A DNA stretch of 64,000 nt from Artemia franciscana. Taxonomy: Eukaryota; Arthropoda; Branchiopoda; Anostraca; Artemiidae. The stretch covers positions 23,289,696 through 23,353,695 of the forward strand of contig NC_088880.1 in NCBI RefSeq assembly GCF_032884065.1, written 5' to 3'. Within the stretch, counting starts at the first letter, position 1, and each line of letters opens with the position of its first letter. Both the position numbers and the translations under genes were made by a program. The notes under the pieces were generated by a model. The model was not told the origin of the DNA. It worked only from the letters and a program-made list of their open reading frames with translations, and did not search any database. Of the stretch, positions 3,001 through 27,835 are shown one piece after another.

Positions 3001-3640
3001 TCAACATATCCCCCTCCCCCAAGACCGTGGGAGTACCAAGGGTTGTAACTTGTGCCCCGGGTGTATATAAGGTTTTATGGAAGAGGTGGTCTTAAGTACG
3101 TCGGAGGGGATTCAAATAATTCGAAATTGAAAGCTCTAGTTCCCTTTTTAAGAGTCAAAAGTGATGCGATGGCAGCTAGCCCCCCCATCCACCAGCCCTC
3201 TTTTCCCCAATTGTGTCCGATCGAAAATCTTATATAGCCATTTTTTCCCAATTGACCGAAAATTATACAAAAAACTGCAGGGATAACACAGCCCCCCGCC
3301 CCCCAGAACCTTGTGAGTAAGTGTTGCAAGTTATGCCCCAGTACATATAAGGCATTTATTGGGGGGGGGGTAGTATACAATCCATAGGGAGCTCATTCGA
3401 TTGTAAATCGGAATTTCTAGTTCCTTTTTTAAGACTCAAAAGTGATCGGAGGGCTACTAGCCTCCAAAAGGCCTTTTTTTCCCAAAGCATCCAATCAAAA
3501 TTTTGATGTAATTCCTTTGTTCAAAATAGTTTAAAGATAGAATAACAAAAACTCTGGGTTTATCTCAACCCCCAGAGCCAATCGGTAAGTATTATAAATT
3601 ATGCACCGGGGGCATATGCGTTCTTATGCGAGGGTTTTGT
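1..3640. repeat. Diverged tandem array, about 270-bp unit, ~13 copies
   Basis: The phrase 'aaacttcagagagggctcat' or a close variant recurs near 109, 389, 660, 929, 1194, 1458, 1726, 2008, 2281, 2547, 2836, 3096 and 3378, giving periods of roughly 260-290 bp. Each unit then carries 'gaaagttctagttc', 'ggagggcaactagcccc', a C-rich stretch, 'gagatagccattttgtt', 'caaagatcatataac' and a 'gccccgggggcata' segment that can fold on itself. Copies differ by many substitutions and small gaps, so the array is old. Short reading frames inside it are not conserved between units and are not genes. The unit is colinear with the middle of repeat H found later in the window. Confidence 0.85.
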
Positions 3641-3686
3641 TAAAAATCAGATATACCGAACCCCCCCCCCCCCCCCTTACTAAAAT

Positions 3687-4020
3687 ACTTATGAAAAATA
3701 TTCTATTCCAAAACTTCATCGAGCTGATATCTGGCCTTCTCTGCATGGCCCGACCCCTCCCCCCAAGAAAACAACTTATTAACAATATTTTATTTTAAAA
3801 CTTACGGGAGCTCAACCCTGGTCATCCATGGTCCAACCCCCGCCCCCTAATAAATAACTTATTAACAATATTTTATTCCAAAAATCACGAGCGCTGACCC
3901 CTGGAGCTCCCTCCATGACTCCCCCCCCCGAATCAAAAAACTTATTAACGATATTTTGTTCCAAATATCGTGGGAATTCGGTTTAATTTTATTAGCTCTT
4001 TCCAAAACTGTTAAAGACAC
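3687..4020. repeat. Four ~84-bp subrepeats inside the 2.15-kb unit
   Basis: The motif 'acttattaacaatattttat' or a variant starts at 3687, 3774, 3857 and 3940, spaced 87, 83 and 83 bp. C-rich tracts of variable length lie between. The same block recurs in copies 2 and 3 of the larger unit. C-run lengths differ between copies, as expected for slippage-prone DNA. Confidence 0.8.
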
Positions 4021-5128
4021 CTATATTCTTCACTACAAATAAGAGTATGGCTACTACCCGCATCCTTAACGATAGAAGCATAAGGTCTACTGCGCATTTG
4101 GAGCCTTACTAGAACGAATTAAATTACAAATATTTTCCTTTGTGCTTATTAAAATATTGAAAATAAAATGACAATTGGAGTGAAACCAGACAAGGATTCA
4201 CCTATAGGCCCACTAGACCCTCCGGTTTTCACTATTCCCGAAGTTTTTGGGATTCTCCTGAAAATCTTACAAAAAAGGAGCGGCAAAAACGCTTGGGCCT
4301 AGAACTGTCTAGTTTGACTCTTCCTCTTAACTCTACTTTTTAAAACAGTAAAAAACTTTAGCTTAAAGAGCGGGGCGTTGAAGAGGAAGCATCTCCTTTC
4401 ATATACGAAGTAATTTCTGTTCGCTTTAAGTTTTAATGTCGCTCCTTACTTTTCGTTAAAAACAAGAGCTAAGAGCTCATATGGCACTTGTGACGAGGCA
4501 AGAAGAGCTAAGAGCCAAGAGCTCGCTCGTATGATATGAGCTATAAGAAAATTCTAAGAATCAATAGATTGATCTAAAAGGAAAATCAGAGGCTTAATGC
4601 CGGTCAGGATTTAGAATAAGAGCTCTGAGTCACGATGTCCTTCTAAATATCAAAATTCATTAAGATCCGATCACCCAATCGTAAGTTATAAATACCTAAT
4701 TTCTTCTAATTTTCCCTCTCCCTTTAGCCCCCCAGATGGTTGAATCTGGGAAAACGGCTTTATTAAGTCAATTTGTGCAGCTCCCTGACACGCCTACCAA
4801 TTTTCATCGTCCTAGCACGTCCAGAAGCACCAAACTCGCCAAATCACTGAACCCCCCAACTCCCCCAACGAGAGCGAATATTAGTTCCATTCCAACCACA
4901 GATGTAGGTTTTTCTGGAGAAGGGATTTCAGTTTATCTTGATGGCAAAATCATTTCCCAGCTGTCTTGGGACAAACATGGGTTGAAATAAAACACGTAAG
5001 TTTGAATTACGATTGGATTGGGGCTCGGGAGATAAAAAGTGCAATAATGACAAACCTTAACAAATAAACTTTCAAATGGAGACAAGTCCGTTTATTAGAC
5101 AGTGAAAGTAGATACAAAATTCTGGATA

Positions 5129-5159
5129 TTTCAACCACATATACAGCAGTCGTCATCAG
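5129..5159 (-). other. Hammerhead-ribozyme-like core motif (weak)
   Basis: Read on the minus strand, CTGATGA is followed by a potential hairpin (CGACTGC paired with GTGGTTG, several G-U pairs) and then GAAA. That is the order of the conserved core and stem II of hammerhead ribozymes. The same arrangement is at 7278-7308 and 21360-21390. In the last copy the hairpin begins CAAC instead of CGAC, turning a G-U into an A-U pair. I could not identify convincing stems I and III or a clear cleavage triplet, so this may be chance or a decayed motif. Confidence 0.25.
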
Positions 5160-5792
5160 CAGAAATACTAAAGCATTAGAATTAACAATAACAGAACAAA
5201 AATAGTAATTCCCGGTTCATTCACTAGATTTGCCTGACAGAGTCTAGTAACTGGGTTCATCCAAAGTCTTGAGTTGTAAATTCCTTCTTTAGTACTGTCT
5301 AAATGTAAGTTGAATTGCTAGTAAAGGTGGCAAAATCTTCTTGTATTCTAATTGCTATAGAATTTTTTTCAATTTATAGATACATACTTGACTAGTCACA
5401 CTGAACATTCATTTGTTCGTCATAGAAAAGCAGTTTGGTCTTGGAAAAAACCTATTTTAGGTATTACTTCGAAACTGTGCCAAATCTTATGATTGCAACT
5501 TCAACAAAATAACTAAACTTTTGCAAAATCGGAAATAACAATGCTTTTTATTTTAAAAAATAGTTAATCTCCAATACAGAACAGGATTGTGTAAAAAGCA
5601 TATCAAACGGGACCTGTTGAACAGCAGAACATTGACATTAATTCATATGTTCTGTCATATATTATCATGATTTGTAGTTTACAGTTGTACAGTTTGTAGT
5701 TTTCTCCAAATCGGAATTAGGCACCTTCAAAGGAAAATATTACAAAACGCGGGCTTTCCACAATTTATCATATTTTTTTACATAACTTGACT

Positions 5793-7941
5793 TAAAAATC
5801 AGATATACCGAAACCCCCCCCCCCCCTTACTAAAATACTTATGAAAAATATTCTATTCCAAAACTTCATCGAGCTGATATCTGGCCTTCTTTGCATGGCC
5901 CGACCCCTCCCCCCAAGAAAACAACTTATTAACAATATTTTATTTTAAAACTTACGGGAGCTCAACCCTGGTCATCCATGGTCCAACCCCCGCCCCCTAA
6001 TAAATAACTTATTAACAATATTTTATTCCAAAAATCACGAGCGCTGACCCCTGGAGCTCCCTCCATGACTCCCCCCCCCCGAATGAAAAAACTTATTAAC
6101 GATATTTTGTTCCAAATATCGTGGGAATTCGGTTTAATTTTATTAGCTCTTTCCAAAACTGTTAAAGACACCTATATTCTTCACTACAAATAAGAGTATG
6201 GCTACTACCCGCATCCTTAACGGTAGAAGCATAAGGTCTACTGCGCATTTGGAGCCTTACTAGAACGAATTAAATTGCAAATATTTTCCTTTGTGCTTAT
6301 TAAAATATTGAAAATAAAATGACAATTGGAGTGAAACCAGACAAGGATTCACCTATAGGCCCACTAGACCCTCCGGTTTTCACTATTCCCGAAGTTTTTG
6401 GGATTCTCCTGAAAATCTTACAAAAAAGGAGCGGCAAAAACGCTTGGGCCTAGAACTGTCTAGTTTGACTCTTCCTCTTAACTCTACTTTTTAAAACAGT
6501 AAAAACTTTAGCTTAAAGAGCGGGGCGTTGAAGAGGAAGCATCTCCTTTCATATACGAAGTAATTTCTGTTCGCTTTAAGTTTTAATGTCGCTCCTTACT
6601 TTCCGTTAAAAACAAGAGCTAAGAGCTCATATGGCACTTGTGACGAGGCAAGAAGAGCTAAGAGCCAAGAGCTCGCTCGTATGATATGAGCTATAAGAAA
6701 ATTCTAAGAATCAATAGATTGATCTAAAAGGAAAATCAGAGGCTTAATGCCGGTCAGGATTTAGAATAAGAGCTCTGAGTCACGATGTCCTTCTAAATAT
6801 CAAAATTCATTAAGATCCGATCACCCAATCGTAAGTTATAAATACCTAATTTCTTCTAATTTTCCCTCTCCCTTTAGCCCCCCAGATGGTTGAATCTGGG
6901 AAAACGGCTTTATTAAGTCAATTTGTGCAGCTCCCTGACACGCCTACCAATTTTCATCGTCCTAGCACGTCCAGAAGCACCAAACTCGCCAAATCACTGA
7001 ACCCCCCAACTCCCCCAACGAGAGCGAATATTAGTTCCATTCCAACCACAGATGTAGGTTTTTCTGGAGAAGGGATTTCAGTTATCTTGATGGCAAAATC
7101 ATTTCCCAGCTGTCTTGGGACAAACATGGGTTGAAATAAAACACGTAAGTTTGAATTACGATTGGATTGGGGCTCGGGAGATAAAAAGTGCAATAATGAC
7201 AAACCTTAACAAATAAACTTTCAAATGGAGACAAGTCCGTTTATTAGACAGTGAAAGTAGATACAAAATTCTGGATATTTCAACCACATATACAGCAGTC
7301 GTCATCAGCAGAAATACTAAAGCATTAGAATTAACAATAACAGAACAAAAATAGTAATTCCCGGTTCATTCACTAGATTTGCCTGACAGAGTCTAGTAAC
7401 TGGGTTCATCCAAAGTCTTGAGTTGTAAATTCCTTCTTTAGTACTGTCTAAATGTAAGTTGAATTGCTAGTAAAGGTGGCAAAATCTTCTTGTATTCTAA
7501 TTGCTATAGAATTTTTTTCAATTTATAGATACATACTTGACTAGTCACACTGAACATTCATTTATTCGTCATAGAAAAGCAGTTTGGTCTTGGAAAAAAC
7601 CTATTTTAGGTATTACTTCGAAACTGTGCCAAATCTTATGATTGCAACTTCAACAAAATAACTAAACTTTTGCAAAATCGGAAATAACAATGCTTTTTAT
7701 TTTAAAAAATAGTTAATCTCCAATACAGAACAGGATTGTGTAAAAAGCATATCAAACGGGACCTGTTGAACAGCAGAACATTGACATTAATTCATATGTT
7801 CTGTCATATATTATCATGATTTGTAGTTTACAGTTGTACAGTTTGTAGTTTTCTCCAAATCGGAATTAGGCACCTTCAAAGGAAAATATTACAAAACGCG
7901 GGCTTTCCACAATTTATCATATTTTTTTACATAACTTGACT
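5793..7941. repeat. 2.15-kb tandem unit, copy 2
   Basis: Near-identical to 3641-5792, joined head to tail at 'cataacttgacttaaaaatc'. It shares several variants with copy 3 against copy 1, for example 'gaatgaaaa' for 'gaatcaaaa' and 'cggtagaag' for 'cgatagaag'. One T is missing in 'cagttatcttgatgg' compared with copy 1 and the 21-kb fragment. It contains no supported gene. Confidence 0.92.
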
Positions 7942-9184
7942 TAAAAATCAGATATACCGAAACCCCCCCCCCCCCCCTTACTAAAATACTTATGAAAAAT
8001 ATTCTATTCCAAAACTTCATCGAGCTGATATCTGGCCTTCTTTGCATGGCCCGACCCCTCCCCCCAAGAAAACAACTTATTAACAATATTTTATTTTAAA
8101 ACTTACGGGAGCTCAACCCTGGTCATCCATGGTCCAACCCCCGCCCCCTAATAAATAACTTATTAACAATATTTTATTCCAAAAATCACGAGCGCTGACC
8201 CCTGGAGCTCCCTCCATGACTCCCCCCCCCCCCCGAATGAAAAAACTTATTAACGATATTTTGTTCCAAATATCGTGGGAATTCGGTTTAATTTTATTAG
8301 CTCTTTCCAAAACTGTTAAAGACACCTATATTCTTCACTACAAATAAGAGTATGGCTACTACCCGCATCCTTAACGGTAGAAGCATAAGGTCTACTGCGC
8401 ATTTGGAGCCTTACTAGAACGAATTAAATTGAAAATATTTTCCTTTGTGCTTATTAAAATATTGAAAATAAAATGACAATTGGAGTGAAACCAGACAAGG
8501 ATTCACCTATAGGCCCACTAGACCCTCCGGTTTTCACTATTCCCGAAGTTTTTGGGATTCTCCTGAAAATCTTACAAAAAAGGAGCGGCAAAAACGCTTG
8601 GGCCTAGAACTGTCTAGTTTGACTCTTCCTCTTAACTCTACTTTTTAAAACAGTAAAAAACTTTAGCTTAAAGAGCGGGGCGTTGAAGAGGAAGCATCTC
8701 CTTTCATATACGAAGTAATTTCTGTTCGCTTTAAGTTTTAATGTCGCTCCTTACTTTTCGTTAAAAACAAGAGCTAAGAGCTCATATGGCACTTGTGACG
8801 AGGCAAGAAGAGCTAAGAGCCAAGAGCTCGCTCGTATGATATAAGCTATAAGAAAATTCTAAGAATCAATAGATTGATCTAAAAGGAAAATCAGAGGCTT
8901 AATGCCGGTCAGGATTTAGAATAAGAGCTCTGAGTCACGATGTCCTTCTAAATATCAAAATTCATTAAGATCCGATCACCCAATCGTAAGTTATAAATAC
9001 CTAATTTCTTCTAATTTTCCCTCTCCCTTTAGCCCCCCAGATGGTTGAATCTGGGAAAACGGCTTTATTAAGTCAATTTGTGCAGCTCCCTGACACGCCT
9101 ACCAATTTTCATCGTCCTAGCACGTCCAGAAGCACCAAACTCGCCAAATCACTGAACCCCCCAACTCCCCCAACGAGAGCGAAT
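7942..9184. repeat. 2.15-kb unit, copy 3, left part
   Basis: Matches the first 1243 bp of the unit and stops at 'gagagcgaat', where copies 1 and 2 continue with 'attagttcc'. Here the sequence continues instead into the 290-bp array element. The remainder of the unit is found at 21109-22025. The two parts sum to about 2160 bp, the expected unit length. Confidence 0.9.
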
Positions 9185-11339: not shown

Positions 11340-11620
11340 CCGCAAATCTGAGCGGCTGTTTGCTTGTCTCTCTCACATTACTTGTGTGTTTGAGCTGGTG
11401 TTTGCATGTTTCCGTTTCTGTCTTTGTGTGTTTGTGTGCCTGACTTTGTGTGTTTGTGGGTATTTTTTCTCTTTCTATCTTACTGTGCCTGTGTGTCTGA
11501 GCGGCTGTTTGCCTGTCTCTCATTTTATGTCTGTGTGTCTGTGCGGGTGGTTGCATGTTTTCGTTTCGGTCTTTGTGAGTTTGTTTGTTTGACTCTGTTT
11601 GTTTGTAGGAGGGTTTTTTT

Positions 11621-11666
<46 letters not shown>

Positions 11667-11799
11667 ACTATGCCTGTATGTCTGAGCGGCTGTTTGCTTG
11701 TCTCTCTCATATTGCATGTATTTATGAGTGGGTGTTTGCATGTTTCCCTGTCTGTCTTTGTGTGTTTGTTTGTCTGACTCTGTGTGTTTGTAGGTGTTT

Positions 11800-11835
<36 letters not shown>

Positions 11836-12567
11836 TCCCTCTCTCTCACACACACACACTATGCCTGTGTGTCTGATCGGCTGTTTACTTGTCTCTCACA
11901 CTATGCCTGTGTATCTGTGCGGGTGGTTGCCTGTTTCTTTGTGTGTTTGACTCTGTTTGTTTATAGATGTTTTTTCTCTCTCTCTCTCTGTCCCACTATG
12001 CCTATGTATCTGAGCGGCGGTTTTCCTGTCTTTATCACTGTGCCTATGCGTCTTAGTGGGTATTCACATGTTTCTGTACTTGTCTTTGTGTGGATGACTC
12101 TGTGTGTTTTTAGGTATTTTTGTCACTCTCTCTCTCTCTCACCATGCCTGTTTATCTGCTCGACTATCAGTTTGTCTCTCTTACTATGCTTGTGTGTCTG
12201 AGCGGGTGATTAGATGTTTCCATGCCTGTCTTTGTGTGTTTGTCCATCTGACTCGGTGTGTTTGTAGGTGTTTTTTCTATCTATCTCATTGTGCCTGTAA
12301 CTCTGAGTAGATGTTTGCTTGTCTCTCTCACTATGCCTGTGTGTCTGAGCGAGTGTTTGCATGTTTCTGTGTCTGTCTTTGTATGCTTTTGTGTCTGACT
12401 CTGGTGTTTGTAGGTGTTTTTGTCTCTCTCTCACTATGCCTGAGTGTCTGAGTGGCTGTTTGCTTGCCTTTCTCACTATGCCTGTGTGTCTGAGTGGGTG
12501 TTTGCATGTTTCTGTGTCTATCTTTGTGTATGTGTATGTCTGAATCTGTATTTCTGTAGCTGTTTTC

Positions 12568-12612
<45 letters not shown>

Positions 12613-12680
12613 ACTATGCCTGTCTGACTGAGCAGCTATCTTCTTGTCTCTCTCACTCTGACTGTGTGTCTGAGCGAGTA
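11340..12680. repeat. CT-rich tandem array with embedded (TC)n runs
   Basis: Units share 'actatgcctgtgtgtctgag', 'tgtttgcatgtttctgtgtc' and 'gtgtgtttgtaggtgttttt', separated by TC microsatellites at about 11620-11655, 11805-11845 and 12570-12605. Open frames run through on both strands because the composition lacks stops, and they give Cys/Leu/Ser/Val-rich products or Arg-Glu runs. These are composition artefacts and not genes. The inner part (from 12046) lies in the left arm of the large inverted repeat and recurs at 19373-20017. Confidence 0.85.
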
Positions 12681-13955
12681 CTGTCGAGGCATTAGTCTGG
12701 TCTCTGTAGGTAGCAAATTAGTTAGTTATATGATACTTTTTAGACTGAGAGAGGCTGCTGACAAAGTTTTAAGAGAAGAATAGTGCGGTTCGAGAAAAGG
12801 TAGAGGATCTGTCGACCACATTTTCACTCTTAGGTTAATAATTGAGAAGTACCTTAGTTGTCAAACACCTTTGGTCCTCACTTTTGTAGATTATGAGCAA
12901 ACTTTTGATTTCGTTGATAGACAAGCTTTAGTAAAGGTCTTATCCTTATATGGTATGCCAGACATAAACATCAAACTGATTAGCACTATATATGAGAATA
13001 ATACTGCTGCGGTTAAGGTAGGAAATGAGGTTAGCAGCTAGTTTTGTATTAAATCAGGAGTTAATCATGGTCGTGTTATATCCCTCTTTATATGGATTAT
13101 TTTGATGGACTTCGTCTTAAGGAGCACAGGAAAGGCAATGGGAGACCACGGAATCAAATAGGGAGGAAAAACTCTCCTGGACTTAGATTATGCTGATGAT
13201 TTAAACATCCTAGATGAAAGTGTGAGCAAAATGGATAAACTTTTAGAGGTTTCGCGAATTCGGGTTGCTAGAATAGGTTTGAAAATTAATGCTAAGAAGA
13301 CTAAGTCACTAAAGCCAGAAATAAGTGAATGTGAAAAGGTGACGCTGGGTAACGAAAAGATTGATCTGGTGGACAGCTTAAGTTACCTTGGTAGTATAGG
13401 TAGTATTATTAGTAAAGACGGTGGGAGCCGTGATGCTAAAATCAGAATAGTCAGGGCTCTGGGGATTAGAATATTGGATGGTACAGTGATGGCATTGATG
13501 AAATATGGTTCAGAAGCATGGGTGCTCCGAAAAGCACTTGAAGATTTTACTAGATGTTTTCCAGAGAAATTACCAACAGATTGTTCTTGGTACCAGGCTG
13601 ACCAATCGTATTTCAAACAGTAGGCAGTAGGAAAAATTTGGTTCAATCCCGCTTTCTTGGGCTATAATGAAAGGAAGGTTGAGATGGCTAGGGTAGGTTC
13701 TGCGGATGAAGGATGATAGATTGCCGAAAATTGTCCTTTTCGGCCAATCGTTCAAGACTAAACGGAAAGCAGGTTGTCCTCGTCTTGGGTGGGAGGACGT
13801 CATAAAGAAAGATTTAAAAGAATTGGCAACTTCCTTTGAGGGTGTAAAGAGGGAGATTTTGAATAGATTGGGATGGAGGAGGAGCATGCATAGCTGTTTT
13901 GGCCTCAGGCAGCTTGTTGCGGCGGTGGGTTGTTGTTAATAGTAGTAGTCGTAGT
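12678..13955 (+). mobile_element. Broken LINE reverse transcriptase fragment (left arm)
   Basis: Conceptual translation gives the middle and C-terminal part of a non-LTR reverse transcriptase. It runs from an RGISLVSVGSKLVS-like start, through the 'RKGRGSVDH' region and the catalytic block LDYADDL (about 13180-13206), to GLKINAKKTKSL, MKYGSEAWVLRKA and a C-terminal GCPRLGWEDVIKKDLKEL block. It is interrupted by in-frame stops and frameshifts and lacks the endonuclease half, so it is a dead 5'-truncated copy. It ends in a TAGTAG-type trinucleotide tail (about 13936-13958), as RTE-like LINEs often do. It is the same family as 22264-24835. Confidence 0.88.
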
Positions 13956-13961
13956 AGTACA

Positions 13962-14246
13962 AATACATAAAAAGAATCGAATTTTTATGCTGATTTTAAA
14001 AATATAAGTTTAGTCTTATTCATAAAAATTTCAAGCCTGAGAAAATTTGCCTTATTTCCGAAAAAGGGGGACACATCCCTAAAAGTCATAGAATCTTGAT
14101 GAAAATCACACCATCGGATTCAGCGCATCAGAGAACCTAACTGAAGAGGTTTCAAGCTCATATCTGCAAAAATGTGGAATTGTGTTTTATTTCAGAAGAA
14201 AGATCACGGATCCGTGTTTATTTGTTGTTTTTTTTCCAGGGGTGTT
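13962..14246 (+). repeat. Repeat H fragment (left arm)
   Basis: Matches repeat H from 'aaaaagaatcgaatttttat' through 'aaaatcacaccatcggattc' to 'ttttttttccaggggtg', lacking the hairpin start. It is cut off exactly where the SINE begins. Confidence 0.8.
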
Positions 14247-14420
14247 GTACAGAGAACGAATCTTAGATATTTATAGTGTATTGTATTGTATCGGATTAAC
14301 GACGCTTCTTGACTACTAAGGTCCCTGCGTCGGCCCTGCAGTGCATTGCTGCAGCATGATTCGATCTCTGGGTCCCGTATTACCAAGCTAAGGTCAAACC
14401 CACTGCGCCACCGCAGGACA
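14247..14420 (-). mobile_element. tRNA-derived SINE (left arm)
   Basis: Read on the minus strand, the element starts at 'gtcctgcggtggcgcagtgg'. It contains a good polymerase III A box (TGGCGCAGTGG) and, 31 bp on, a degenerate B box (GAGATCGAATC). It then passes through a unique body to an A+T-rich end with 'gtattgtattgt'. It is identical or nearly so to the copy in the right arm. The spacing of the two boxes is tRNA-like, but no tRNA fold is kept, so this is a SINE and not a tRNA gene. The open frame across it is incidental. Confidence 0.75.
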
Positions 14421-14594
14421 AAAAATGATATTTTTAGTGCCATCCTTGTTACTAATATTTAAAAAATCTCAAAATTGCCTTTCCAAGCAGCTAAACATAA
14501 GACTGTTACGTACTCATGATGCTTTGCATTTGGGTTGACCCCAATATGATTTAAAACGTGAATTACGCCATTTACTATGGGTTACAACCATCAA

Positions 14595-14717
14595 TGACGT
14601 CAAACGAAAACAAAAAATCTAGTTATTTGAACTTCCCTTTTGCATTATCATTATGACATCATTTCCCATGATGTCATGAGCTAATATAAAAATACGCTTT
14701 AAAACAAGTCATCTCAG
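14595..14717 (+). promoter_or_regulatory. Putative promoter of left RING-ankyrin gene
   Basis: A TATAAAAA box lies at 14685-14692, about 60 bp before the ATG. Upstream is a perfect cAMP-response-type octamer TGACGTCA at 14595-14602, and a 10-bp inverted pair at 14653-14677 (ATGACATCAT, 5-bp gap, ATGATGTCAT), each half resembling a bZIP site. Transcription would be expected to start near 14715. The layout suggests control by a CREB/ATF-type bZIP factor. That is inferred from motifs only. Confidence 0.55.
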
Positions 14718-14753
14718 AATCAAAAGCTAATTTCATAAGAAGTATCGAAGAGT

Positions 14754-15683
14754 ATGGAAAGGAGTCTCTTTTGTCCGATTTGTTTAAATGAACTGAAGGA
14801 TCCTCTTCGGACTTTAAAATGTAAGCATGTATTTTGTGGCTATTGCATTAAGAAATGGCTACAAGTAAAAGCCTCATGTCCAATGGATCGAAATACTGTA
14901 GTTATAAAAGATTTGTTGCCTCTATATTCATATAGTGACGAGAGACCAACATCACCAATTATTGAAAATCTCTTAGAATACAACGGAATTTACTTTCACC
15001 CGAATAGAATCAGGAACATGTGCTTCTCCTCTGGAAAACCAGCAAAATGTACCGCCTTACATGTTGCTGCTAGACAAGGCAATTTGGAGATTTGTCAACT
15101 ACTAGTTTCAAAAGGTGCCACTGTAGATGCCTTAGACTCGGAAAATAGGACAGCCTTACACTTTGCTGCTTTCAGAGGCAATTTGGAGATTTGCCAACTA
15201 CTAGTTTCAAAAGGTGCCACTGTAGATGCCTTAGACTTGAAAAACAGGACAGCGTTACATGTTGCTGCTTTCAAAGGCAATTTGGAGATTTGTCAACTAC
15301 TAGTTTCAAAAGGGGCGACTGTAGATGCCTTAAACTCGGAAAAATGGACAGCCTTACATTTTGCTGCTTTCAATGGCAATTTGGAGATTTGTCAACTACT
15401 ACTTTCAAAAGGTGCCACTGTAGATGCCTTAGACTTGGAAAACTGGACAGCCTTACACTTTGCTGCTTTCAAAGGCAATTTGGAGATTTGCCAACTACTA
15501 GTTTCAAAAGGTGCCACTGTAGATGCCTTAGACTTGAAAAACAGGACAGCGTTACTTGTTGCTGCTTTCAAAGGCAATTTGGAGATTTGTCAACTACTAG
15601 TTTCAAAAGGGGCCACTGTAGATGCCTTGGACTCGGAAAAATGCACAGCCTTACAAATTGCTGCTTCGGAAAATATTTGCTAA
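14754..15683 (+). CDS. RING-finger/ankyrin-repeat protein, 3'-truncated copy
   Basis: The 309-codon intronless frame begins with the first ATG after a TATA-type promoter. Residues 7-45 form a RING finger with ligands C7, C10, C23, H25, C28, C31, C42 and D45. The last position is Asp in a CPMDR motif, as in the C3HC3D RING of RNF41/NRDP1-type ubiquitin ligases. From residue 100 come six full 33-residue ankyrin repeats (TALHVAA...GNLEICQLLVSKGATVDALD) and the start of a seventh. A role as an E3 ubiquitin ligase with ankyrin substrate binding is inferred from the domains. The frame leaves the shared sequence at the arm boundary (15671) and ends ENIC-stop, with the TAA overlapping an AATAAA signal (15682-15687). 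Compared with the right copy it has lost 34+ C-terminal residues. Expression is unknown. Confidence 0.72.
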   Translation: MERSLFCPICLNELKDPLRTLKCKHVFCGYCIKKWLQVKASCPMDRNTVVIKDLLPLYSYSDERPTSPIIENLLEYNGIYFHPNRIRNMCFSSGKPAKCTALHVAARQGNLEICQLLVSKGATVDALDSENRTALHFAAFRGNLEICQLLVSKGATVDALDLKNRTALHVAAFKGNLEICQLLVSKGATVDALNSEKWTALHFAAFNGNLEICQLLLSKGATVDALDLENWTALHFAAFKGNLEICQLLVSKGATVDALDLKNRTALLVAAFKGNLEICQLLVSKGATVDALDSEKCTALQIAASENIC

Positions 15684-16259
15684 TAAATATTTTTATCTAT
15701 TATCCGTCCATGCGTCATTGCTAGGGCAGTAGAACCAAAGTAGATAGTCATAGAGCTAAGAGAGTGATAGAACCTAAAGTTTTCCAAGCGTTTGATTAAT
15801 TTGGCTTGGGTAAACGGCGATAGTATGTGGGTGCCTCTCTCATTGGACCAACATTTGTTTGTTATCTTTTAGCAAGACACGCCTGCCTAGAGTCTCAGGA
15901 AGGTTGACCCAGAATTTAAAATTGACATAGGACCATTAGATTGCCTGGAATGAGAGGTAAACAAGGGACACTTAACTATGGTCTTAGGCAGGCTGAACCA
16001 ACAATTTAGAATTGAAACAAGAGACCGTTAATTTCGCCTAGAATCAGAGGCAAACAAGCGTCTAAAGTCAAAATGGGACCAGTCTGCAATGAGCGTCAGG
16101 CAAGGCAATTGGTCCAATTTATAAACTTAGGCATTTGCTAGACTAATAAAAAAATTTAATTCAATGTTAGTTGAACAACAAGTTGACTGAAACTGCAAAG
16201 GGGAATAAGAGTCCAAAGCCAACAAGGGCCTCCTATCTGCCTTTAAATGTTATTATAAG
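15684..16259. other. Centre of the inverted repeat, no gene seen
   Basis: This single-copy DNA lies between the 3' ends of the two convergent RING-ankyrin genes. No open frame above about 60 codons and no recognisable repeat was seen. The non-palindromic centre as a whole is 15672-16373 and includes the last part of the right gene. Confidence 0.6.
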
Positions 16260-17291
16260 CTAAGACAGTTGGGATTGATTCACTGCGTAAAATAAGGCTC
16301 TTTTATTGTCCAAATCTAAGACATCTATAGTGGCACCCTTTGAAACTAGTAGTTGACAAATCTCTAAATAGCCTTCCGAAGCAGCAATTTGTAAGGCTGT
16401 GCATTTTTCCGAGTCCAAGGCATCTACAGTGGCCCCTTTTGAAACTAGTAGTTGACAAATCTCCAAATTGCCTTTGAAAGCAGCAACAAGTAACGCTGTC
16501 CTGTTTTTCAAGTCTAAGGCATCTACAGTGGCACCTTTTGAAACTAGTAGTTGGCAAATCTCCAAATTGCCTTTGAAAGCAGCAAAGTGTAAGGCTGTCC
16601 AGTTTTCCAAGTCTAAGGCATCTACAGTGGCACCTTTTGAAAGTAGTAGTTGACAAATCTCCAAATTGCCATTGAAAGCAGCAAAATGTAAGGCTGTCCA
16701 TTTTTCCGAGTTTAAGGCATCTACAGTCGCCCCTTTTGAAACTAGTAGTTGACAAATCTCCAAATTGCCTTTGAAAGCAGCAACATGTAACGCTGTCCTG
16801 TTTTTCAAGTCTAAGGCATCTACAGTGGCACCTTTTGAAACTAGTAGTTGGCAAATCTCCAAATTGCCTCTGAAAGCAGCAAAGTGTAAGGCTGTCCTAT
16901 TTTCCGAGTCTAAGGCATCTACAGTGGCACCTTTTGAAACTAGTAGTTGACAAATCTCCAAATTGCCTTGTCTAGCAGCAACATGTAAGGCGGTACATTT
17001 TGCTGGTTTTCCAGAGGAGAAGCACATGTTCCAGATTCTATTGGGGTGAAAGTAAATTCCGTTGTATTCTAAGAGATTTTCAATAATTGGTGATGTTGGT
17101 CTCTCGTCACTATATGAATATAGAGGCAACAAATCTTTTATAACTACAGTATTTCGATCCATTGGACATGAGGCTTTTACTTGTAGCCATTTCTTAATGC
17201 AATAGCCACAAAATACATGCTTACATTTTAAAGTCCGAAGAGGATCCTTCAGTTCATTTAAACAAATCGGACAAAAGAGACTCCTTTCCAT
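16260..17291 (-). CDS. RING-finger/ankyrin-repeat protein, longer copy
   Basis: 343 codons, intronless, minus strand, convergent with the left copy. It has the same N-terminal C3HC3D RING (residues 7-45), the CPMDR motif and the linker. Seven complete ankyrin repeats follow (residues 100-330), then a partial eighth (RALFYAVNQSQLS). The ankyrin units are almost identical at DNA level, including silent sites, and repeats 2-3 and 5-6 resemble each other as a 297-bp higher-order unit. One visible residue difference from the left copy is W for R in the RIRNMC segment before the repeats. By family, such proteins could join ubiquitin to ankyrin-bound targets in the cytoplasm or nucleus, but the target cannot be told. 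The copy looks whole. No AATAAA is obvious just downstream. Confidence 0.78.
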   Translation of the reverse strand: MERSLFCPICLNELKDPLRTLKCKHVFCGYCIKKWLQVKASCPMDRNTVVIKDLLPLYSYSDERPTSPIIENLLEYNGIYFHPNRIWNMCFSSGKPAKCTALHVAARQGNLEICQLLVSKGATVDALDSENRTALHFAAFRGNLEICQLLVSKGATVDALDLKNRTALHVAAFKGNLEICQLLVSKGATVDALNSEKWTALHFAAFNGNLEICQLLLSKGATVDALDLENWTALHFAAFKGNLEICQLLVSKGATVDALDLKNRTALLVAAFKGNLEICQLLVSKGATVDALDSEKCTALQIAASEGYLEICQLLVSKGATIDVLDLDNKRALFYAVNQSQLS

Positions 17292-17329
17292 ACTCTTCGA
17301 TACTTCTTATGAAATTAGCTTTTGATTCT

Positions 17330-17450
17330 GAGATGACTTGTTTTAAAGCGTATTTTTATATTAGCTCATGACATCATGGGAAATGATGTCATAATGATAA
17401 TGCAAAAGGGAAGTTCAAATAACTAGATTTTTTGTTTTCGTTTGACGTCA
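17330..17450 (-). promoter_or_regulatory. Putative promoter of right RING-ankyrin gene
   Basis: Mirror image of the left promoter: TATA box at 17353-17360, ATGACATCAT/ATGATGTCAT pair at 17368-17392, and TGACGTCA at 17443-17450. All three match the left-arm motifs exactly. Confidence 0.55.
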
Positions 17451-17624
17451 TTGATGGTTGTAACCCATAGTAAATGGCGTAATTCACGTTTTAAATCATA
17501 TTGGGGTCAACCCAAATGCAAAGCATCATGAGTACGTAACAGTCTTATGTTTAGCTGCTTGGAAAGGCAATTTTGAGATTTTTTAAATATTAGTTTCAAA
17601 GGATGGCACTAAAAATATCATTTT

Positions 17625-17798
17625 TTGTCCTGCGGTGGCGCAGTGGGTTTGACCTTAGCTTGGTAATACGGGACCCAGAGATCGAATCATGCTGCAGCAA
17701 TGCACTGCAGGGCCGACGCAGGGACCTTAGTAGTCAAGAAGCGTCGTTAATCCGATACAATACAATACACTATAAATATCTAAGATTCGTTCTCTGTA
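17625..17798 (+). mobile_element. tRNA-derived SINE (right arm)
   Basis: Plus-strand copy of the left-arm SINE. A box TGGCGCAGTGG is at 17636-17646 and a degenerate B box GAGATCGAATC at 17678-17688. It was duplicated with the arm and is not an independent insertion. Confidence 0.75.
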
Positions 17799-18083
17799 CA
17801 ACACCCCTGGAAAAAAAACAACAAATAAACACGGATCCGTGATCTTTCTTCTGAAATAAAACACAATTCCACATTTTTGCAGATATGAGCTTGAAACCTC
17901 TTCAGTTAGGTTCTCTGATGCGCTGAATCCGATGGTGTGATTTTCATCAAGATTCTATGACTTTTAGGGATGTGTCCCCCTTTTTCGGAAATAAGGCAAA
18001 TTTTCTCAGGCTTGAAATTTTTATGGGTAAGACTAAACTTATATTTTTAAAATCAGCATAAAAATTCGATTCTTTTTATGTAT
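17799..18083 (-). repeat. Repeat H fragment (right arm)
   Basis: Mirror of 13962-14246, running from 'cacccctggaaaaaaaacaa' to the A+T-rich stretch before the LINE tail. A few bases differ from the left arm, for example 'cccataaaaa' against 'ttcataaaaa' on the same strand. Confidence 0.78.
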
Positions 18084-18089
18084 TTGTAC

Positions 18090-19372
18090 TACTACGACTA
18101 CTACTATTAACAACAACCCACCGCCGCAACAAGCTGCCTGAGGCCAAAACAGCTATGCATGCTCCTCCTCCATCCCAATCTATTCAAAATCTCCCTCTTT
18201 ACACCCTCAAAGGAAGTTGCCAATTCTTTTAAATCTTTCTTTATGACGTCCTCCCACCCAAGACGAGGACAACCTGCTTTCCGTTTAGTCTTGAACGGTT
18301 GGCCGAAAAGGACAATCTTCGGCAATCTATCATCCTTCATCCGCAGAACCTACCCTAGCCATCTCAACCTTCCTTTCATTATAGCCCAAGAAAGCGGGAT
18401 TGAACCAAATTTTTCCTACTGCCTACTGTTTGAAATACGATTGGTCAGCCTGGTACCAAGAACAATCTGTTGGTAATTTCTCTGGAAAACATCTAGTAAA
18501 ATCTTCAAGTGCTTTTCGGAGCACCCATGCTTCTGAACCATATTTTATCAATGCCATCACTGTACCATCCAATATTCTAATCCCCAGAGCCCTGACTATT
18601 CTGATTTTAGCATCACGGCTCCCACCGTCTTTACTAATAATACTACCTATACTACCAAGGTAACTTAAGCTGTCCACCAGATCAATCTTTTCGTTACCCA
18701 GCGTCATCTTTTCACATTCACTTATTTCTGGCTTTAGTGACTTAGTCTTCTTAGCATTAATTTTCAAACCTATTCTAGCAACCCGAATTCGCGAAACCTC
18801 TAAAAGTTTATCCATTTTGCTCACACTTTCATCTAGGATGTTTAAATCATCAGCATAATCTAAGTCCAGGAGAGTTTTTCCTCCCTATTTGATTCCGTGG
18901 TCTCCCATTGCCTTTCCTGTGCTCCTTAAGACGAAGTCCATCAAAATAATCCATATAAAGAGGGATATAACACGACCATGATTAACTCCTGATTTAATAC
19001 AAAACTAGCTGCTAACCTCATTTCCTACCTTAACCGCAGCAGTATTATTCTCATATATAGTGCTAATCAGTTTGATGTTTATGTCTGGCATACCATATAA
19101 GGATAAGACCTTTACTAAAGCTTGTCTATCAACGAAATCAAAAGTTTGCTCATAATCTACAAAAGTGAGGACCAAAGGTGTTTGACAACTAAGGTACTTC
19201 TCAATTATTAACCTAAGAGTGAAAATTTGGTCGACAGATCCTCTACCTTTTCTCGAACCGCACTATTCTTCTCTTAAAACTTTGTCAGCAGCCTCTCTCA
19301 GTCTAAAAAGTATCATATAACTAACTAATTTGCTACCTACAGAGACCAGACTAATGCCTCGACAGTACTCGC
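18090..19372 (-). mobile_element. Broken LINE reverse transcriptase fragment (right arm)
   Basis: Mirror copy of 12678-13955, with the LDYADDL catalytic block near 18840-18866 on the minus strand and the same stops. At the base level it differs from its twin by only a few changes, including V to M in EKVTLGNEKI and M to I in MALMKYGSEA. Confidence 0.88.
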
Positions 19373-19433
19373 TCAGACACACAGTCAGAGTGAGAGAGAC
19401 AAGAAGATAGCTGCTCAGTCAGACAGGCATAGT

Positions 19434-19495
<62 letters not shown>

Positions 19496-20017
19496 GAAAA
19501 TACCTACAAAAATACAGATTCAGACATACACATACACAAAGATAGACACAGAAACATGCAAACACCCACTCAGACACACAGGCATAGTGGGAAAGGCAAG
19601 CAAACAGCCACTCAGACACTCAGGCATAGTGAGAGAGAGACAAAAACACCTACAAACACCAGAGTCAGACACAAAAGCATACAAAGACAGACACAGAAAC
19701 ATGCAAACACCCGCTCAGACACACAGGCATAGTGAGAGAGACAAGCAAACATCTACTCAGAGTTACAGGCACAATGAGATAGATAGAAAAAACACCTACA
19801 AACACACCGAGTCAGATGGACAAACACACAAAGACAGGCATGGAAACATCTAATCACCCGCTCAGACACACAAGCATAGTAAGAGAGACAAACTGATAGT
19901 CGAGCAGATAAACAGGCATGGTGAGAGAGAGAGAGAGTGACAAAAATACCTAAAAACACACAGAGTCATCCACACAAAGACAAGTACAGAAACATGTGAA
20001 TACCCACTAAGACGCAT
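19373..20017. repeat. GA/CT-rich tandem array (right arm)
   Basis: Complement of 12046-12680. The GA run at 19439-19495 is longer than its partner in the left arm, which explains most of the arm length difference. Confidence 0.85.
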
Positions 20018-21108
20018 TAAGTACAGCCTAAAAGGTCCTGAAGGAAATTATGTATTTTTGAATCATAACAAAATGTTTTCGGTGATATATTCATTTGCTG
20101 TCACCTAGACATATTAGGGGGGAGGGGGCTACTGGTTTGAAAACCCCTCCAAAAAAATTTACTCAAAGAATTTAATTTTTTTTACCCCACCCAAACCAAA
20201 ATTCTGGATGTGACTCCTGCTGTCGCCAAAAGAAACATTTTTTGGCACAAAGCTTTTGCCTTCACGGATAGTTTTTTCTTTAATCGGTCAATCAATTCAT
20301 TCACCCCAGCACATTTTTTTTTAACAAGTACTGCTAACAATTATTCAGCCCAAGAAGATTATATTCTTGAGGGGGGGGGAACAGTATAAAGACAATACAC
20401 CAAAACTGGAACAAAATACACAAGGAAAAAGACAGATAATATAGGCTAGAATACAATAAAATACAATAATAAAGGAAAAAAACACTGAAAATAGTGGTGG
20501 CAATTTACCGAAATATACGGGACGAAAATACATTTTTATAATCTATAGAAGGCAATTTTTTTCCATTTTTCAGTACAAAAATTTTCAGTGAAAATACGCC
20601 CGTCCCCAAAACTTCAAATGGAAAATCTAGGTGGGTAAATAGCTCTTTTTTTACAAAATTTCAAGTTTCTTGCTTTAATTGCTTACTTTTATATTAAATG
20701 CACCCGTACGAACTTTGAAATTACTTCGAAAATGCACTCTCTGCCCTAACAAGTTACAAGTTCTATTTTATGGATTGAATTAACGAAAGTACATGTAGGC
20801 CTACATAGTATTCGTCTTGATGCATGGACAAACAAATTTAACCATCGCATGAAAATAAGAGGCTTGATTCATTCTATCTATAAAGGCATAGATTCTATCT
20901 GTAGACCATATTTTTCCAAACGTCTGAAATAAAAATGGGGGTTCTTCCTAACATATCTCTTATCCTTTCCTATCAAATTGCAAGATTATGCAAAGTCAAT
21001 TAGTAATCAACTGCATAAAAACCGTCAGAAGAACCAACCGAATCATCTTTTTTTCAAGATAAGAAAATTTATGAGACTTATGCTAAACGAGCGCGAACTT
21101 GTCCAGCT
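20018..21108. other. Intervening A+T-rich DNA, no gene seen
   Basis: Lies between the palindrome and the displaced piece of the 2.15-kb unit. It contains G-runs, T-runs and a 14-bp palindrome near 20793-20806, but no coding frame, RNA gene or repeat I can place. Confidence 0.5.
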
Positions 21109-22025
21109 ATATTAGTTCCATTCCAACCACAGATGTAGCTTTTTTTGGAGAAGGGATTTCAGTTTATCTTGATGGCAAAATCATTTCCCAGCTGTCTTGG
21201 GACAAACATGGGTTGAAATAAAACACGTAAGTTTGAATTACGATTGGATTGGGGCTCGGGAGATAAAAAGTGCAATAATGACAAACCTTAACAAATAAAC
21301 TTTCAAATGGAGATAAGTCCGTTTATTAGACAGTGAAAGTAGATACAAAATTCTGGATATTTCAACCACATATACAGCAGTTGTCATCAGCAGAAATACT
21401 AAAGCATTAGAATTAACAATAACAGAACAAAAATAGTAATTCCCGGTTCATTCACTAGATTTGCCTGACAGAGTCTAGTAACTGGGTTCATCCAAAGTCT
21501 TGAGTTGTAAATTTCTTCTTTAGTACTGTCTAAATGTTAGTTGAATTGCTAGTAAAGGTGGCAAAATCTTCTTGTGTTCTAATTGCTATAGAATTTTTTT
21601 CAATTTATAGATACATACTTGACTAGTCACACTGAACATTCATTTGTTCGTCATAGAAAAGCAGTTTGGTCTTGGAAAAAACCTATTTTAAGGTATTACT
21701 TCGAAACTGTGCCAAATCTTATGATTGCAACTTCAACAAAATAACTAAACTTTTGCAAAATCGGAAATAACAATGCTTTTTATTTTAAAAAAATAGTTAA
21801 TCTCCAATACAGAACAGGATTGTGTAAAAAGCATATCAAACGGGACCTGTTGAACAGCAGAACATTGACATTAATTCATATGTTCTGTCATATATTATCA
21901 TGATTTGTAGTTTACAGTTGTACAGTTTGTAGTTTTCTCCAAATCGGAATTAGGCACCTTCAAAGGAAAATATTACAAAACGCGGGCTTTCCACAATTTA
22001 TCATATTTTTTTACATAACTTGACT
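21109..22025. repeat. 2.15-kb unit, displaced right part of copy 3
   Basis: Matches 4880-5792 from 'attagttccattccaaccac' to 'cataacttgact'. It differs from copies 1 and 2 at about eight to ten sites (for example 'agataagtcc' for 'agacaagtcc' and 'gcagttgtcatc' for 'gcagtcgtcatc'), more than those two differ from each other. It begins exactly where copy 3 stops at 9184. Confidence 0.9.
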
Positions 22026-22079
22026 TTTTTGCTTTTTCAGAATCTACCCACTCCCCCACCTTCGGAGTACAGTTCGTAA

Positions 22080-22263: not shown

Positions 22264-24835
22264 TATCAGAAAATTCATTTTTCCACCAATACCCTGGTAG
22301 TATATGCCCCTGTAGAACCGAGTTACGAAGATACTAGTGACTCTGATGAATTTTACTTACAGTCACAGGAGCAAATAGACAGGGTTCCAGGTAGAAGTAT
22401 GATGTTTTTACTAGGATATTTTAACGCCCAGGTCGGTAGAAATAGGGATAGATGGTATCCTAGCCTAAGTAAATTTGCTATAGGAAAAGAAAACAGTAAT
22501 GGCTACAGACTTTTGCAATTGTGTAGGTATAACAATCTAGTTATAACCAATACGGTGTTTGGTCATAAAATGTCCCATAAGTTAACATGGTATTCGTGTG
22601 ATGGCACAGCCTAGATACCAATATATTGGTATACATAATATATTGGTGTATATTGGTATCTAAGCTGTGGTGTGATGGTAAGACAGCAAACCTTATTGAT
22701 TATGTTAAAGTAAACCGTAGACTGGCAGCATTAATACAAAATATTAGGGTATAAAAGAGTGCTGTTATTGATGTTAAAAGTAAAGGTCACAATCTAGCAG
22801 TGTCTAGGGTTAATTTGAAGCTGAAATTTCGGAAGGGTAACTACCTCCCAGGAAGTTAGGATATTGGTAGACTCCAGGATTAGAGTTTGAGAGATACTTT
22901 CCAGGAACGGTTACATGCTAAACTTGGGAGTTTAAAATTTGACAATGTGGAAGATGGTTGGAATAGTTTTCGAAAAACAATTTGTTAAGTAGTTGATGCT
23001 GTCTTATGGAAGAAAATTAGGAACGCAGCTAGGAATATAAGTAACAAAAGGCTTTATGTTTAATCGAGAAGAGAAGGGGTCTGCACAAGAATTATCTGAG
23101 TGATAGATTATGTGAAAACAAAAGGAATGTAAACAAAAAGGAGAAAGCATTAAAATCATGAACTAAGGATGTTTAAAGTGGAGGTCACGCATAAAATTGT
23201 CGAGGATCCAGCTAGACGGCATAATAGCAAACTATTGTAATGGCATGTTAATAAATTGAGAGGGAGCAGTCAATCGGGACTTGCCCCAGTTAAAGACAGG
23301 AACAGGACCACAATTAGTCATAAGGAAAGAGTTAAAGAAAGACGGGCAGAACATTTTGAGAATGTGCTAAACCCAGATAGAGTTGCAGGAAAAGATATAG
23401 AGGAAAATGAAAAAGTTTGTGATACCTTGGATGTAAAGGAAGATTCGTTTTACGAGAAAGAATTAGTGACAGTACTAAAAGAAGTAAAAAATAATGAAGG
23501 TGCAAGTGCCGATAGTGTGATAAATGAGTTTCTTAAATATTGTGGCTCTGAGGTTAGAAATAAGTTACTGAAGCTTATGAATATGATTTTTGAAAATGGG
23601 GAAGTACTCAAAGATTTTAGGAAAAACCAACAGTGCGGCTTTAGAAAAGGTAGAAGATGTGTCGACCAAGTGTTCACTCTTAGGTTAATAATTGAGAAGT
23701 GCCTGAGTTGCCAAACAACGTGTGGTCCTCAGTTTTACAGATTAGGAGCAAGCGTTCGATTCTTATGATAGAAGAGCTTTAGCAAAGGTCTTATACTTGT
23801 GTGGTATACCAGACAAATACATTAAAGTGATTAGAGCTATGTATGAGAAAAGACTGCTGCGGTTAAGGTATGAAGCGAGGTTAGCAATTGGTTTTAAGTA
23901 AACCAGAAGTTAAGCATGGTTGTGTTCTATCCCCCTTTAAATGGATCATGCGGATGGACTTTGTCTTAAGGAGCACAGGAAAGGCAATGGGAGACCACAG
24001 AATCAAATGAAGAGGAAAAACTCTCCTGGACTTAGATTATGCTGATGATTTAGTATCCTAGATGAAAGTGTGAGCAAAATGAACGAACTTTTAGAGGTTT
24101 GCGATTTAAGGGTGCTAGAACAGGTTTAAAGATTAATGTTGAGAAGACTAAGTCACTAAGGCTAGGAATGAGTGAAGATGAAAAGGTGACATTGGGTAAC
24201 GAAAAGATTGATCAGGTGGGCAGCTTCACTTACTATTAGTGGGAACAGTGAAGATATTAAAAGTAAAATAGCGAAGGCCCAGGGTGTTTTTTCACAGTTA
24301 AAAAAATTTCGGAAAAATAGGAAGATAAGTCTGCAAACCAAGATTAGAATATTAGAAGCTATAGTGATGGCAGTTGTCAAATATGGCTCTGAAGCGTAAG
24401 TGCTTCGAAAAGCGGATGAATATTTGCTGGATGTTTTCCAGAGAAATTGCCCACAGATTGTTCTGGGTACCCGGCTGACTGACCGTATTTCTAACAGTAG
24501 GCTGTACGAAAAATTTGGCTCAATCGCGCTTTCTAGGACCATAATGAAAGAAAGGTTGAGATGGCTTGGACACGTTGTGCGGGTAAAGGATGACAGATTA
24601 CCGAAAATTGTCCTTTTTGGCCAACCGCCTAGAGCAAAACAAAAAGCAGGTCATCCTCGTCTGGGTTGGGAAGACATCAGAAAGAGGGACTTAAAGGAAA
24701 AGTGAACTACCTGGGAGGGTTTAAAAAAGGATGCTTTGAATAGATTGGGATGGAGGAGGAGCGTGCGTAGCTGTGTTGGCCTTAGGCGGCTTGGTGTCAC
24801 GGTGAGTTGTTAGTAGTAGTAGTAGTAATAGTAGT
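22264..24835 (+). mobile_element. Decayed RTE-like LINE (endonuclease plus reverse transcriptase)
   Basis: It starts in an APE-type endonuclease (VVYAPVEPSYEDTSDSDEFY, then GYFNAQVG, NLVITNTVFGHK, LTWYSCDG). The usual catalytic Asp of the GDFNA motif is Tyr here (codon 22417-22419). After a small insertion the frame resumes as KTANLIDYVKVNRRLAAL. A linker with the 170-codon frame at 23256-23768 leads into reverse transcriptase, with an internal deletion before QCGFRKGR and the LDYADDL block at about 24030-24056. YGSEA, NCPQIVLGTRLTDRIS and HPRLGWEDIRKRDLKE follow. It ends with a TAGTAG tail (about 24810-24835). Stops and frameshifts are numerous, so it is inactive. It is the same family as the copies inside the large inverted repeat. 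Confidence 0.88.
22605..22669. mobile_element. 65-bp palindromic MITE-like insertion in LINE endonuclease
   Basis: Terminal inverted repeats of 21 bp with one mismatch (CACAGCCTAGATACCAATA... against ...TATTGGTATCTAAGCTGTG) surround an A+T-rich middle. The element is flanked by a perfect 9-bp direct repeat GTGTGATGG at 22596-22604 and 22670-22678. Removing the element and one repeat restores the endonuclease frame from WYSCDG into KTANLIDYV. A 9-bp duplication is the size made by Mutator-like transposases, and hAT elements make 8 bp. Confidence 0.85.
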
Positions 24836-24839
24836 TAAA

Positions 24840-24995
24840 AGTTTGGTGGATTCTAGAAAAGGAATAAATTAGAAAGGGCGCAGCTAGCGGCGTCAATCGG
24901 GAGTGTGGTATGAGGGGCCTGTAGCCCCCCTATATTTTTTGAGAGGGGGGGAGTTATGTTCATTGAGAAAACCCTTTTTTGGTCTTTCATTCGTC
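24840..24995 (+). repeat. ~160-bp direct repeat after the LINE
   Basis: Counterpart of 22080-22245, with 'ctagaaaagg', 'gcgcagctagcggcgtcaat' and 'tagcccccctatattttttg'. It starts within a few bases of the LINE tail. Confidence 0.6.
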
Positions 24996-27486: not shown

Positions 27487-27835
27487 TTTTTACTGCTTTG
27501 AATCATATACAGCCACGCAAAAAAAGAGAAGCCTCTTGGTCTGTTCTCCAAAAATAAAATTATTTTATTGATCACCTTCATAATTTATGATATTTGTGAG
27601 CGTTTTACTGCTTTGAATCATATACAGCCACGCAAAAAAGGGAAGCCTCTTGGTCTGTTCTCCAAAACTGAAATTATTTTATTGATGACCTTCATAATTT
27701 ATAATATTTGTGAGCGTTTTACTGCTTTGAATCATATACAGGCATGCAAAAAAGGGAGGCCTCATGGCCTGTTCTCCAAAAATAAAAATATTTCATTGAT
27801 CTTCTTCACTATTTATAATATTTCCTGTATGATTC
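27487..27835. repeat. Three ~115-bp tandem units
   Basis: 'ttttactgctttgaatcata' starts at 27487, 27603 and 27717 (periods 116 and 114), each followed by 'gcctcttggtctgttctcca' or a variant and 'atttatgatatttgtgagcg' or a variant. Units are about 90% alike. The 164-codon frame at 27568-28062 overlaps the array and is taken as incidental. Confidence 0.85.

What the first reader, a model, noticed from the sequence alone, without database searches (positions are those of the whole stretch)
12046..20017. 8-kb near-perfect palindrome carrying two convergent RING-ankyrin genes
Arms of 3.63 and 3.64 kb around a 702-bp centre carry the same LINE scrap, repeat H piece, SINE and gene in mirror order, with few differences outside the GA/TC runs. 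All insertions are shared, so the whole block was copied as one piece, recently or with ongoing gene conversion between arms. Convergent near-identical genes mean that any read-through transcript could fold into long double-stranded RNA. A regulatory role through small RNA is possible but only inferred.
Basis: partly seen in the sequence, partly recalled or inferred. Interest (0 to 1): 0.85.

Follow-up and report, generated by a model that had tools for sequence, protein, structure and literature searches.

The report
Young inverted duplication of ankyrin gene
A stretch of probably animal DNA holding one protein gene was recently copied in reverse next to itself, leaving one complete and one shortened copy facing each other; this is a familiar kind of genome rearrangement and no special function is shown.

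Summary
The palindrome is in the sequence exactly as described. Arms 12046-15671 (+) and 20017-16374 (-) are 99.07% identical around a 702-bp centre. They share an old LINE piece, a dispersed repeat, a SINE-like piece and a RING-ankyrin ORF. The right ORF (343 aa) is complete and its last 37 residues lie in the centre. The left ORF (309 aa) is cut at the inner junction and ends in three foreign residues. The outer edges behave the other way round: a minisatellite runs in register across the left edge and stops at the right one. Block 15672-20017 is therefore best read as an inverted copy with two new junctions, made with loss of the parental gene's 3' end. The arms differ at 17 of 3626 aligned bases. 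Six of these could be assigned by alignment to outgroup copies, 4 to the left arm and 2 to the right, so both arms have changed. Nothing found here specifically requires gene conversion. The double-stranded-RNA idea is untested; poly(A)-signal-like hexamers in the centre make it a non-default outcome. An assembly artefact is unlikely but not excluded, because no reads or parental genome were available. Verdict: an ordinary young inverted duplication.

The parts
12046..15671 (+). left arm, 3626 bp
   Evidence: self-blast, 99.07% to right arm; lengths
16374..20017 (-). right arm, 3644 bp
15672..16373 (.). 702-bp centre: native continuation of the right gene (last 37 codons, stop, 3' flank)
16260..17291 (-). 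complete RING-ankyrin ORF, 343 aa, 7 ankyrin units of 33 aa
   Evidence: Pfam RING (PF13923 E 3.3e-13) and Ank (PF13637 E 3.6e-63); units; ankyrin part modelled with pLDDT mostly 75-96, N-terminal 96 residues below 50
14754..15683 (+). truncated RING-ankyrin ORF, 309 aa; last 3 residues come from the centre
12740..13960 (+). broken LINE 3' part (non-LTR reverse transcriptase remnant), left copy
   Evidence: 79.6% to 23609-24835; pieces hit PF00078 RVT_1 at E 1.7e-4 and 0.01, both below Pfam's cut-off
18086..19306 (-). same LINE part, right copy (5 substitutions)
13964..14235 (.). dispersed repeat 'H' piece, left copy; other copies 72-81% identical elsewhere in window
17811..18082 (.). dispersed repeat 'H' piece, right copy (2 substitutions)
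14268..14418 (-). SINE-like piece; tRNA-like A and B boxes seen by eye only (ARAGORN found no tRNA)
   Evidence: sequence; negative; identification is inference
17628..17778 (+). SINE-like piece, right copy (0 differences)
14435..14506 (-). degraded antisense ankyrin-unit remnant upstream of left gene
   Evidence: nhmmer E 6.8e-8, 28.1 bits
17539..17613 (+). same antisense ankyrin remnant, right arm (better preserved)
   Evidence: nhmmer E 2.4e-11, 39.2 bits
14653..14717 (+). promoter-like stretch of left gene: 10-bp dyad ATGACATCAT/ATGATGTCAT, TATAAAAA at 14685, TCAG at 14714 (31 bp on), ATG at 14754
   Evidence: TATA/TCAG pattern is not above chance window-wide (5 found, 2.99 expected)
17328..17392 (-). 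identical promoter-like stretch of right gene
11400..12680 (+). TC-rich minisatellite (units of about 145-185 bp) running in register across the left outer junction
   Evidence: TRF rows 11936-12238 and 12172-12578; blast alignment continuous over 11991-12140
19366..20017 (-). mirror minisatellite, ending abruptly at the right outer junction
   Evidence: no match of 20018-20180 to the left array
15682..15687 (+). AATAAA overlapping the stop codon of the truncated gene

Best explanation
A young inverted segmental duplication. The parental order was minisatellite - LINE piece - repeat H - SINE-like piece - RING-ankyrin gene - 3' flank. A rearrangement placed an inverted copy (15672-20017, 4346 bp) directly after codon 306 of the parental gene, by fold-back repair of a broken end or by replication template switching. 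The parental gene's last 37 codons and 3' flank were lost from the left copy and survive only in the inverted one. The single-copy 702-bp stretch is the spacer of the event. The result is one complete gene, one truncated gene and no demonstrated new function; the left protein lacks its last ankyrin unit and C-terminus. Shown: anatomy, junctions, truncation, post-duplication changes on both arms. Inferred: the event type, that the complete gene is used, and neutrality of the pair.
For: Arm identity and shared insertions. Inner junction native on the right, broken on the left. Outer junction in register on the left, broken on the right, so the two new junctions are the two ends of one block. Six substitutions polarise by outgroup alignment, 4 to the left arm (12819, 13748, 14019, 14020) and 2 to the right (13339, 13729); one (13500) could not be polarised by it. 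PMC3907307 (abstract and passages seen) reports a single-copy spacer at all 21 sequenced human inverted-duplication junctions, 766-70,466 bp; 702 bp lies just below that range. Other young rearrangements lie within 10 kb: array A-B-A-B-A at 3640-9184 and a further B at 21109-22026, with 1-8 substitutions per 915-1239 bp.
Against: The parental locus, reads and relatives are not available, so event order and microhomology at the fold-back cannot be tested. Shared bases at the arm ends would hide any microhomology.
Confidence: 0.78

Rival explanations
1. Assembly or library artefact: a fold-back or amplification chimera, or a second haplotype joined in inverted orientation.
For: Fold-back and amplification palindromes are common: PMC6218980 (passages) reports palindromes in 43.6-47.8% of two amplified Arabidopsis read sets, against 0.5% in the control. 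0.47% divergence is also of the size of allelic differences (general knowledge).
Against: A simple fold-back would mirror its flank onward; here the mirror stops at 20017 and 44 kb of different sequence follows. The 702-bp centre is asymmetric. No N in the window. The arms differ by clumped substitutions, 4 derived on the left and 2 on the right, not by scattered homopolymer errors alone. Two separate errors would be needed. The two-haplotype version is not excluded by the substitutions.
Confidence: 0.13
2. Hairpin small-RNA locus: read-through from either gene makes a stem of about 0.9 kb (gene part) with a 702-nt loop that is diced to silence this gene family.
For: Convergent near-identical ORFs with identical promoter-like stretches.
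Against: Poly(A)-like hexamers lie in the centre on both strands; every young inverted gene duplication has this geometry; no RNA family match in the window, although Rfam would not list such a locus; no RNA data.
Confidence: 0.04
3. Palindrome kept similar by arm-to-arm gene conversion, as in sex-chromosome palindromes, so the duplication is older than it looks.
For: Long identical stretches, e.g. 659 bp over the ankyrin units; conversion between inverted arms is known in general.
Against: The longest identical run is not surprising (P = 0.52); SNPs lie across most of the arm; tandem copies nearby are just as young. Clumped differences could be conversion tracts from other copies, which cannot be separated from multi-base mutations here.
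Confidence: 0.05

Closest known systems
Inverted duplications with a single-copy ('disomic') spacer, fold-back mechanism (Hermetz et al. 2014, PMC3907307; abstract and passages seen)
   Same: Inverted copies around a non-duplicated spacer; one side native into the spacer; more than one new junction.
   Different: Those are large human germline events next to terminal deletions; here arms are 3.6 kb and internal, and the parental sequence is unknown, so inverted microhomology could not be counted.
ODIRA inverted triplication and its secondary products (PMC10766186; abstract and section list seen)
   Same: Also proposes palindromic junctions as source of inverted copy-number variants.
   Different: Predicts a triplication first; only two copies are in this window.
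Y-chromosome palindromes with gene conversion (P1-P8 mentioned in passages of PMC6218980; rest recalled)
   Same: High arm identity, genes in arms, unique spacer.
   Different: Arms here are 3.6 kb, below the 8.7-1450 kb given there; no sex linkage or conversion shown.
RING-plus-ankyrin E3 ligases (BARD1, MIB, XB3/XBAT: recalled, not searched)
   Same: RING and ankyrin repeats in one protein; RING part matches solved E3 ligases, e.g. Peroxin-10 E 9.9e-11 and RING2 E 1e-9.
   Different: Short 343-aa protein, eighth zinc-ligand position is Asp45 not Cys, as in TRAF6 by recall; no BRCT or other domain was among the Pfam matches.

Membership tests
Inverted segmental duplication with single-copy spacer | two inverted arms of high identity | tested here: met
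   99.07% over 3644 columns
Inverted segmental duplication with single-copy spacer | non-duplicated spacer continuous with one arm | tested here: met
   right ORF runs 37 codons into the centre; left ORF is cut at 15671
Inverted segmental duplication with single-copy spacer | inverted microhomology at spacer edge | not testable with these tools
   parental locus not held
Gene-converting palindrome (sex-chromosome type) | arms more similar than their age allows | not testable with these tools
   no relative to date the duplication
Gene-converting palindrome (sex-chromosome type) | identical tracts longer than expected | tested here: not met
   659-bp run, P = 0.52
Long-terminal-inverted-repeat (foldback) transposon | target-site duplication at the outer ends | tested here: not met
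   only one 4-base match (GCCT, not abutting both ends) between the 20-bp flanks
RING-type E3 ligase | RING zinc-ligand pattern | tested here: met
   C7 C10 C23 H25 C28 C31 C42 D45, a C3HC3D form; Pfam above cut-off
RING-type E3 ligase | ubiquitin ligase activity | not testable with these tools
   none
Hairpin/endo-siRNA locus | phased small RNAs from the arms | not testable with these tools
   no RNA data

The most novel reading that the evidence does not exclude
The inverted pair works as a self-silencing hairpin locus: transcripts of the truncated left gene, whose stop and poly(A) signal were created by the junction, read through into the intact gene's antisense strand and feed small RNAs that tune a RING-ankyrin ligase family.
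Probability: 0.04. Interest if true: 0.55.

Novelty: new member of a known kind. Interest (0 to 1): 0.2.

Why it matters
It is a clean snapshot of an inverted duplication caught young, with both new junctions readable and a gene truncated by one of them. It shows how such events produce a shortened gene copy with a ready-made stop and poly(A) hexamer. It does not change any general understanding.

Tried and rejected
Foldback transposon: rejected, no target-site duplication. Bacterial or viral origin of the gene: viral contigs gave 3 pattern matches and no relative. Genome contigs gave 38 pattern matches and 3 relatives, all matching from residue 87 or later, i.e. outside the RING. NCBIfam matches to ankyrin effectors are generic ankyrin similarity, far below cut-offs (e.g. 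159 bits against 600). Other copies of the gene in the window: apart from the two ORFs, the only match found at or below E 0.1 is the antisense remnant. Gene conversion: no specific support. Selection on the ankyrin units: pooled pN/pS 0.59 over the 21 unit pairs, weak and confounded by unit-to-unit exchange. TATA/TCAG promoter: 5 matches in the window against 2.99 expected, 19 of 100 shuffles reach 5, so not significant by itself. Organism: a crustacean such as Artemia was guessed from recall of its reverse-transcriptase repeats; no call tests this. Papers on Artemia (listing, passages of PMC10827361) and palindrome-plus-Artemia gave nothing on this locus. Listings were used for orientation only, apart from the papers cited. 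PMC12870357 passages held nothing decisive. Structure: single-sequence model has pLDDT under 50 for residues 1-96, so the RING fold is not confirmed by it; no fold search was run.

Full report
Observation. Self-comparison of the window finds 12046-15671 against 20017-16374 at 99.07% over 3644 columns. The arms are 3626 and 3644 bp and the centre 702 bp. A MAFFT alignment has 17 substitutions, one 17-base difference in a TC run and one 1-base gap.

Contents. Both arms hold, from outside in: a TC-rich minisatellite, a broken LINE 3' part (79.6% to another copy at 23609-24835; weak reverse-transcriptase hits below Pfam's cut-off), a dispersed repeat with other copies in the window, a SINE-like piece (identified by eye; ARAGORN found no tRNA), a remnant of one ankyrin unit on the opposite strand (E 2.4e-11 right, 6.8e-8 left), a promoter-like stretch with a perfect 10-bp dyad, and a RING-ankyrin ORF. 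Insertions that are old by divergence from other copies are shared, so they precede the duplication.

The copies are not equal. The ORFs agree for 306 codons except R87 (left) against W87 (right). The right ORF continues for 37 residues inside the centre; the left ends N-I-C-stop, all from the centre, with AATAAA overlapping its stop. So the inner junction is native on the right and new on the left. At the outer edge the minisatellite aligns in register across the left junction (blast over 11991-12140) and the sequence beyond the right junction has no match to the array. So the outer junction is new on the right. The two new junctions are the two ends of one block, 15672-20017 (4346 bp), which is most simply an inverted copy put after a truncated parental gene. 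An alternative order is fold-back of the right copy followed by a homologous switch between minisatellite copies; it gives the same product and cannot be told apart here.

Age and conversion. 17 of 3626 aligned bases differ (0.47%). Using the LINE copy at 23580-24840 and six copies of repeat H as outgroups, four changes fall on the left arm, two on the right and one (13500) is undecided. The remaining ten (six in the minisatellite region, two at 14449-14450, two in the gene) were not in that test. At 14446-14450 the right arm looks more like the gene's ankyrin unit (39.2 against 28.1 bits), suggesting the left changed. Differences are clumped (P = 0.00025, post-hoc cut-off), but the longest identical run is not unusual (P = 0.52). 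Youth explains the similarity; conversion is not required and not excluded. Neighbouring repeats are about as young: A-B-A-B-A at 3640-9184 and a separate B at 21109-22026 (A pairs 3-7 substitutions in about 1237 bp; B pairs 1, 7 and 8 in about 915).

Gene. The RING part has ligands C7 C10 C23 H25 C28 C31 C42 D45 and matches solved RING ligases (82 distinct PDB sequences at E up to 0.001, best Peroxin-10 E 9.9e-11). Seven 33-residue ankyrin units follow; the truncated copy keeps six and the start of the seventh. A single-sequence AlphaFold model is confident for most of the ankyrin part only (mean pLDDT 71.4). No expression evidence exists here. Pooled pN/pS among units is 0.59.

RNA idea. Poly(A)-like hexamers lie in the centre: AATAAA at 15682 and 16145 and TATAAA at 16120 on the plus strand, ATTAAA 16160 and TATAAA 16123 on the minus strand. 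Transcripts could end before meeting. Read-through hairpin RNA is possible but inferred, and every young inverted gene pair has the same geometry.

Artefact. Palindromic artefacts are common in amplified long-read data (PMC6218980, passages). Here a mirror that stops at 20017, an asymmetric spacer, no N and arm-private clumped substitutions speak against a simple fold-back read. A misjoined second haplotype is less easily excluded. No whole genome is held, so depth and reads could not be checked.

Known kinds. The spacer anatomy is that of human fold-back inverted duplications, all 21 of whose sequenced junctions had a single-copy spacer of 766-70,466 bp (PMC3907307, abstract and passages). 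I therefore file it as a new member of a known kind, on anatomy alone; inverted microhomology could not be tested.

Noticed in passing
3640-9184 and 21109-22026: Array A-B-A-B-A (A about 1240 bp, B about 916 bp) with a separate B copy 12 kb away having the same ends and 7-8 substitutions; either B is mobile or it was moved by excision and reinsertion.
   Followed up: partly
14435-14506 (-) and 17539-17613 (+): Degraded antisense piece of one ankyrin unit just upstream of each gene: an older inverted copying at the same locus.
   Followed up: yes
14653-14677 and 17368-17392: Perfect dyad ATGACATCAT-5-ATGATGTCAT 8 bp upstream of a TATA-like sequence; looks like a bZIP-type site (recalled).
   Followed up: partly
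15054-15666 and 16309-16991: Ankyrin units of 99 bp are 88-90% alike at DNA level with a higher-order period of 297 bp, suggesting recent unit expansion inside the gene.
   Followed up: partly
57802-58004 and 27488-27823: Tandem repeats of 106 bp (94%) and 114 bp (90%), not examined.
   Followed up: no
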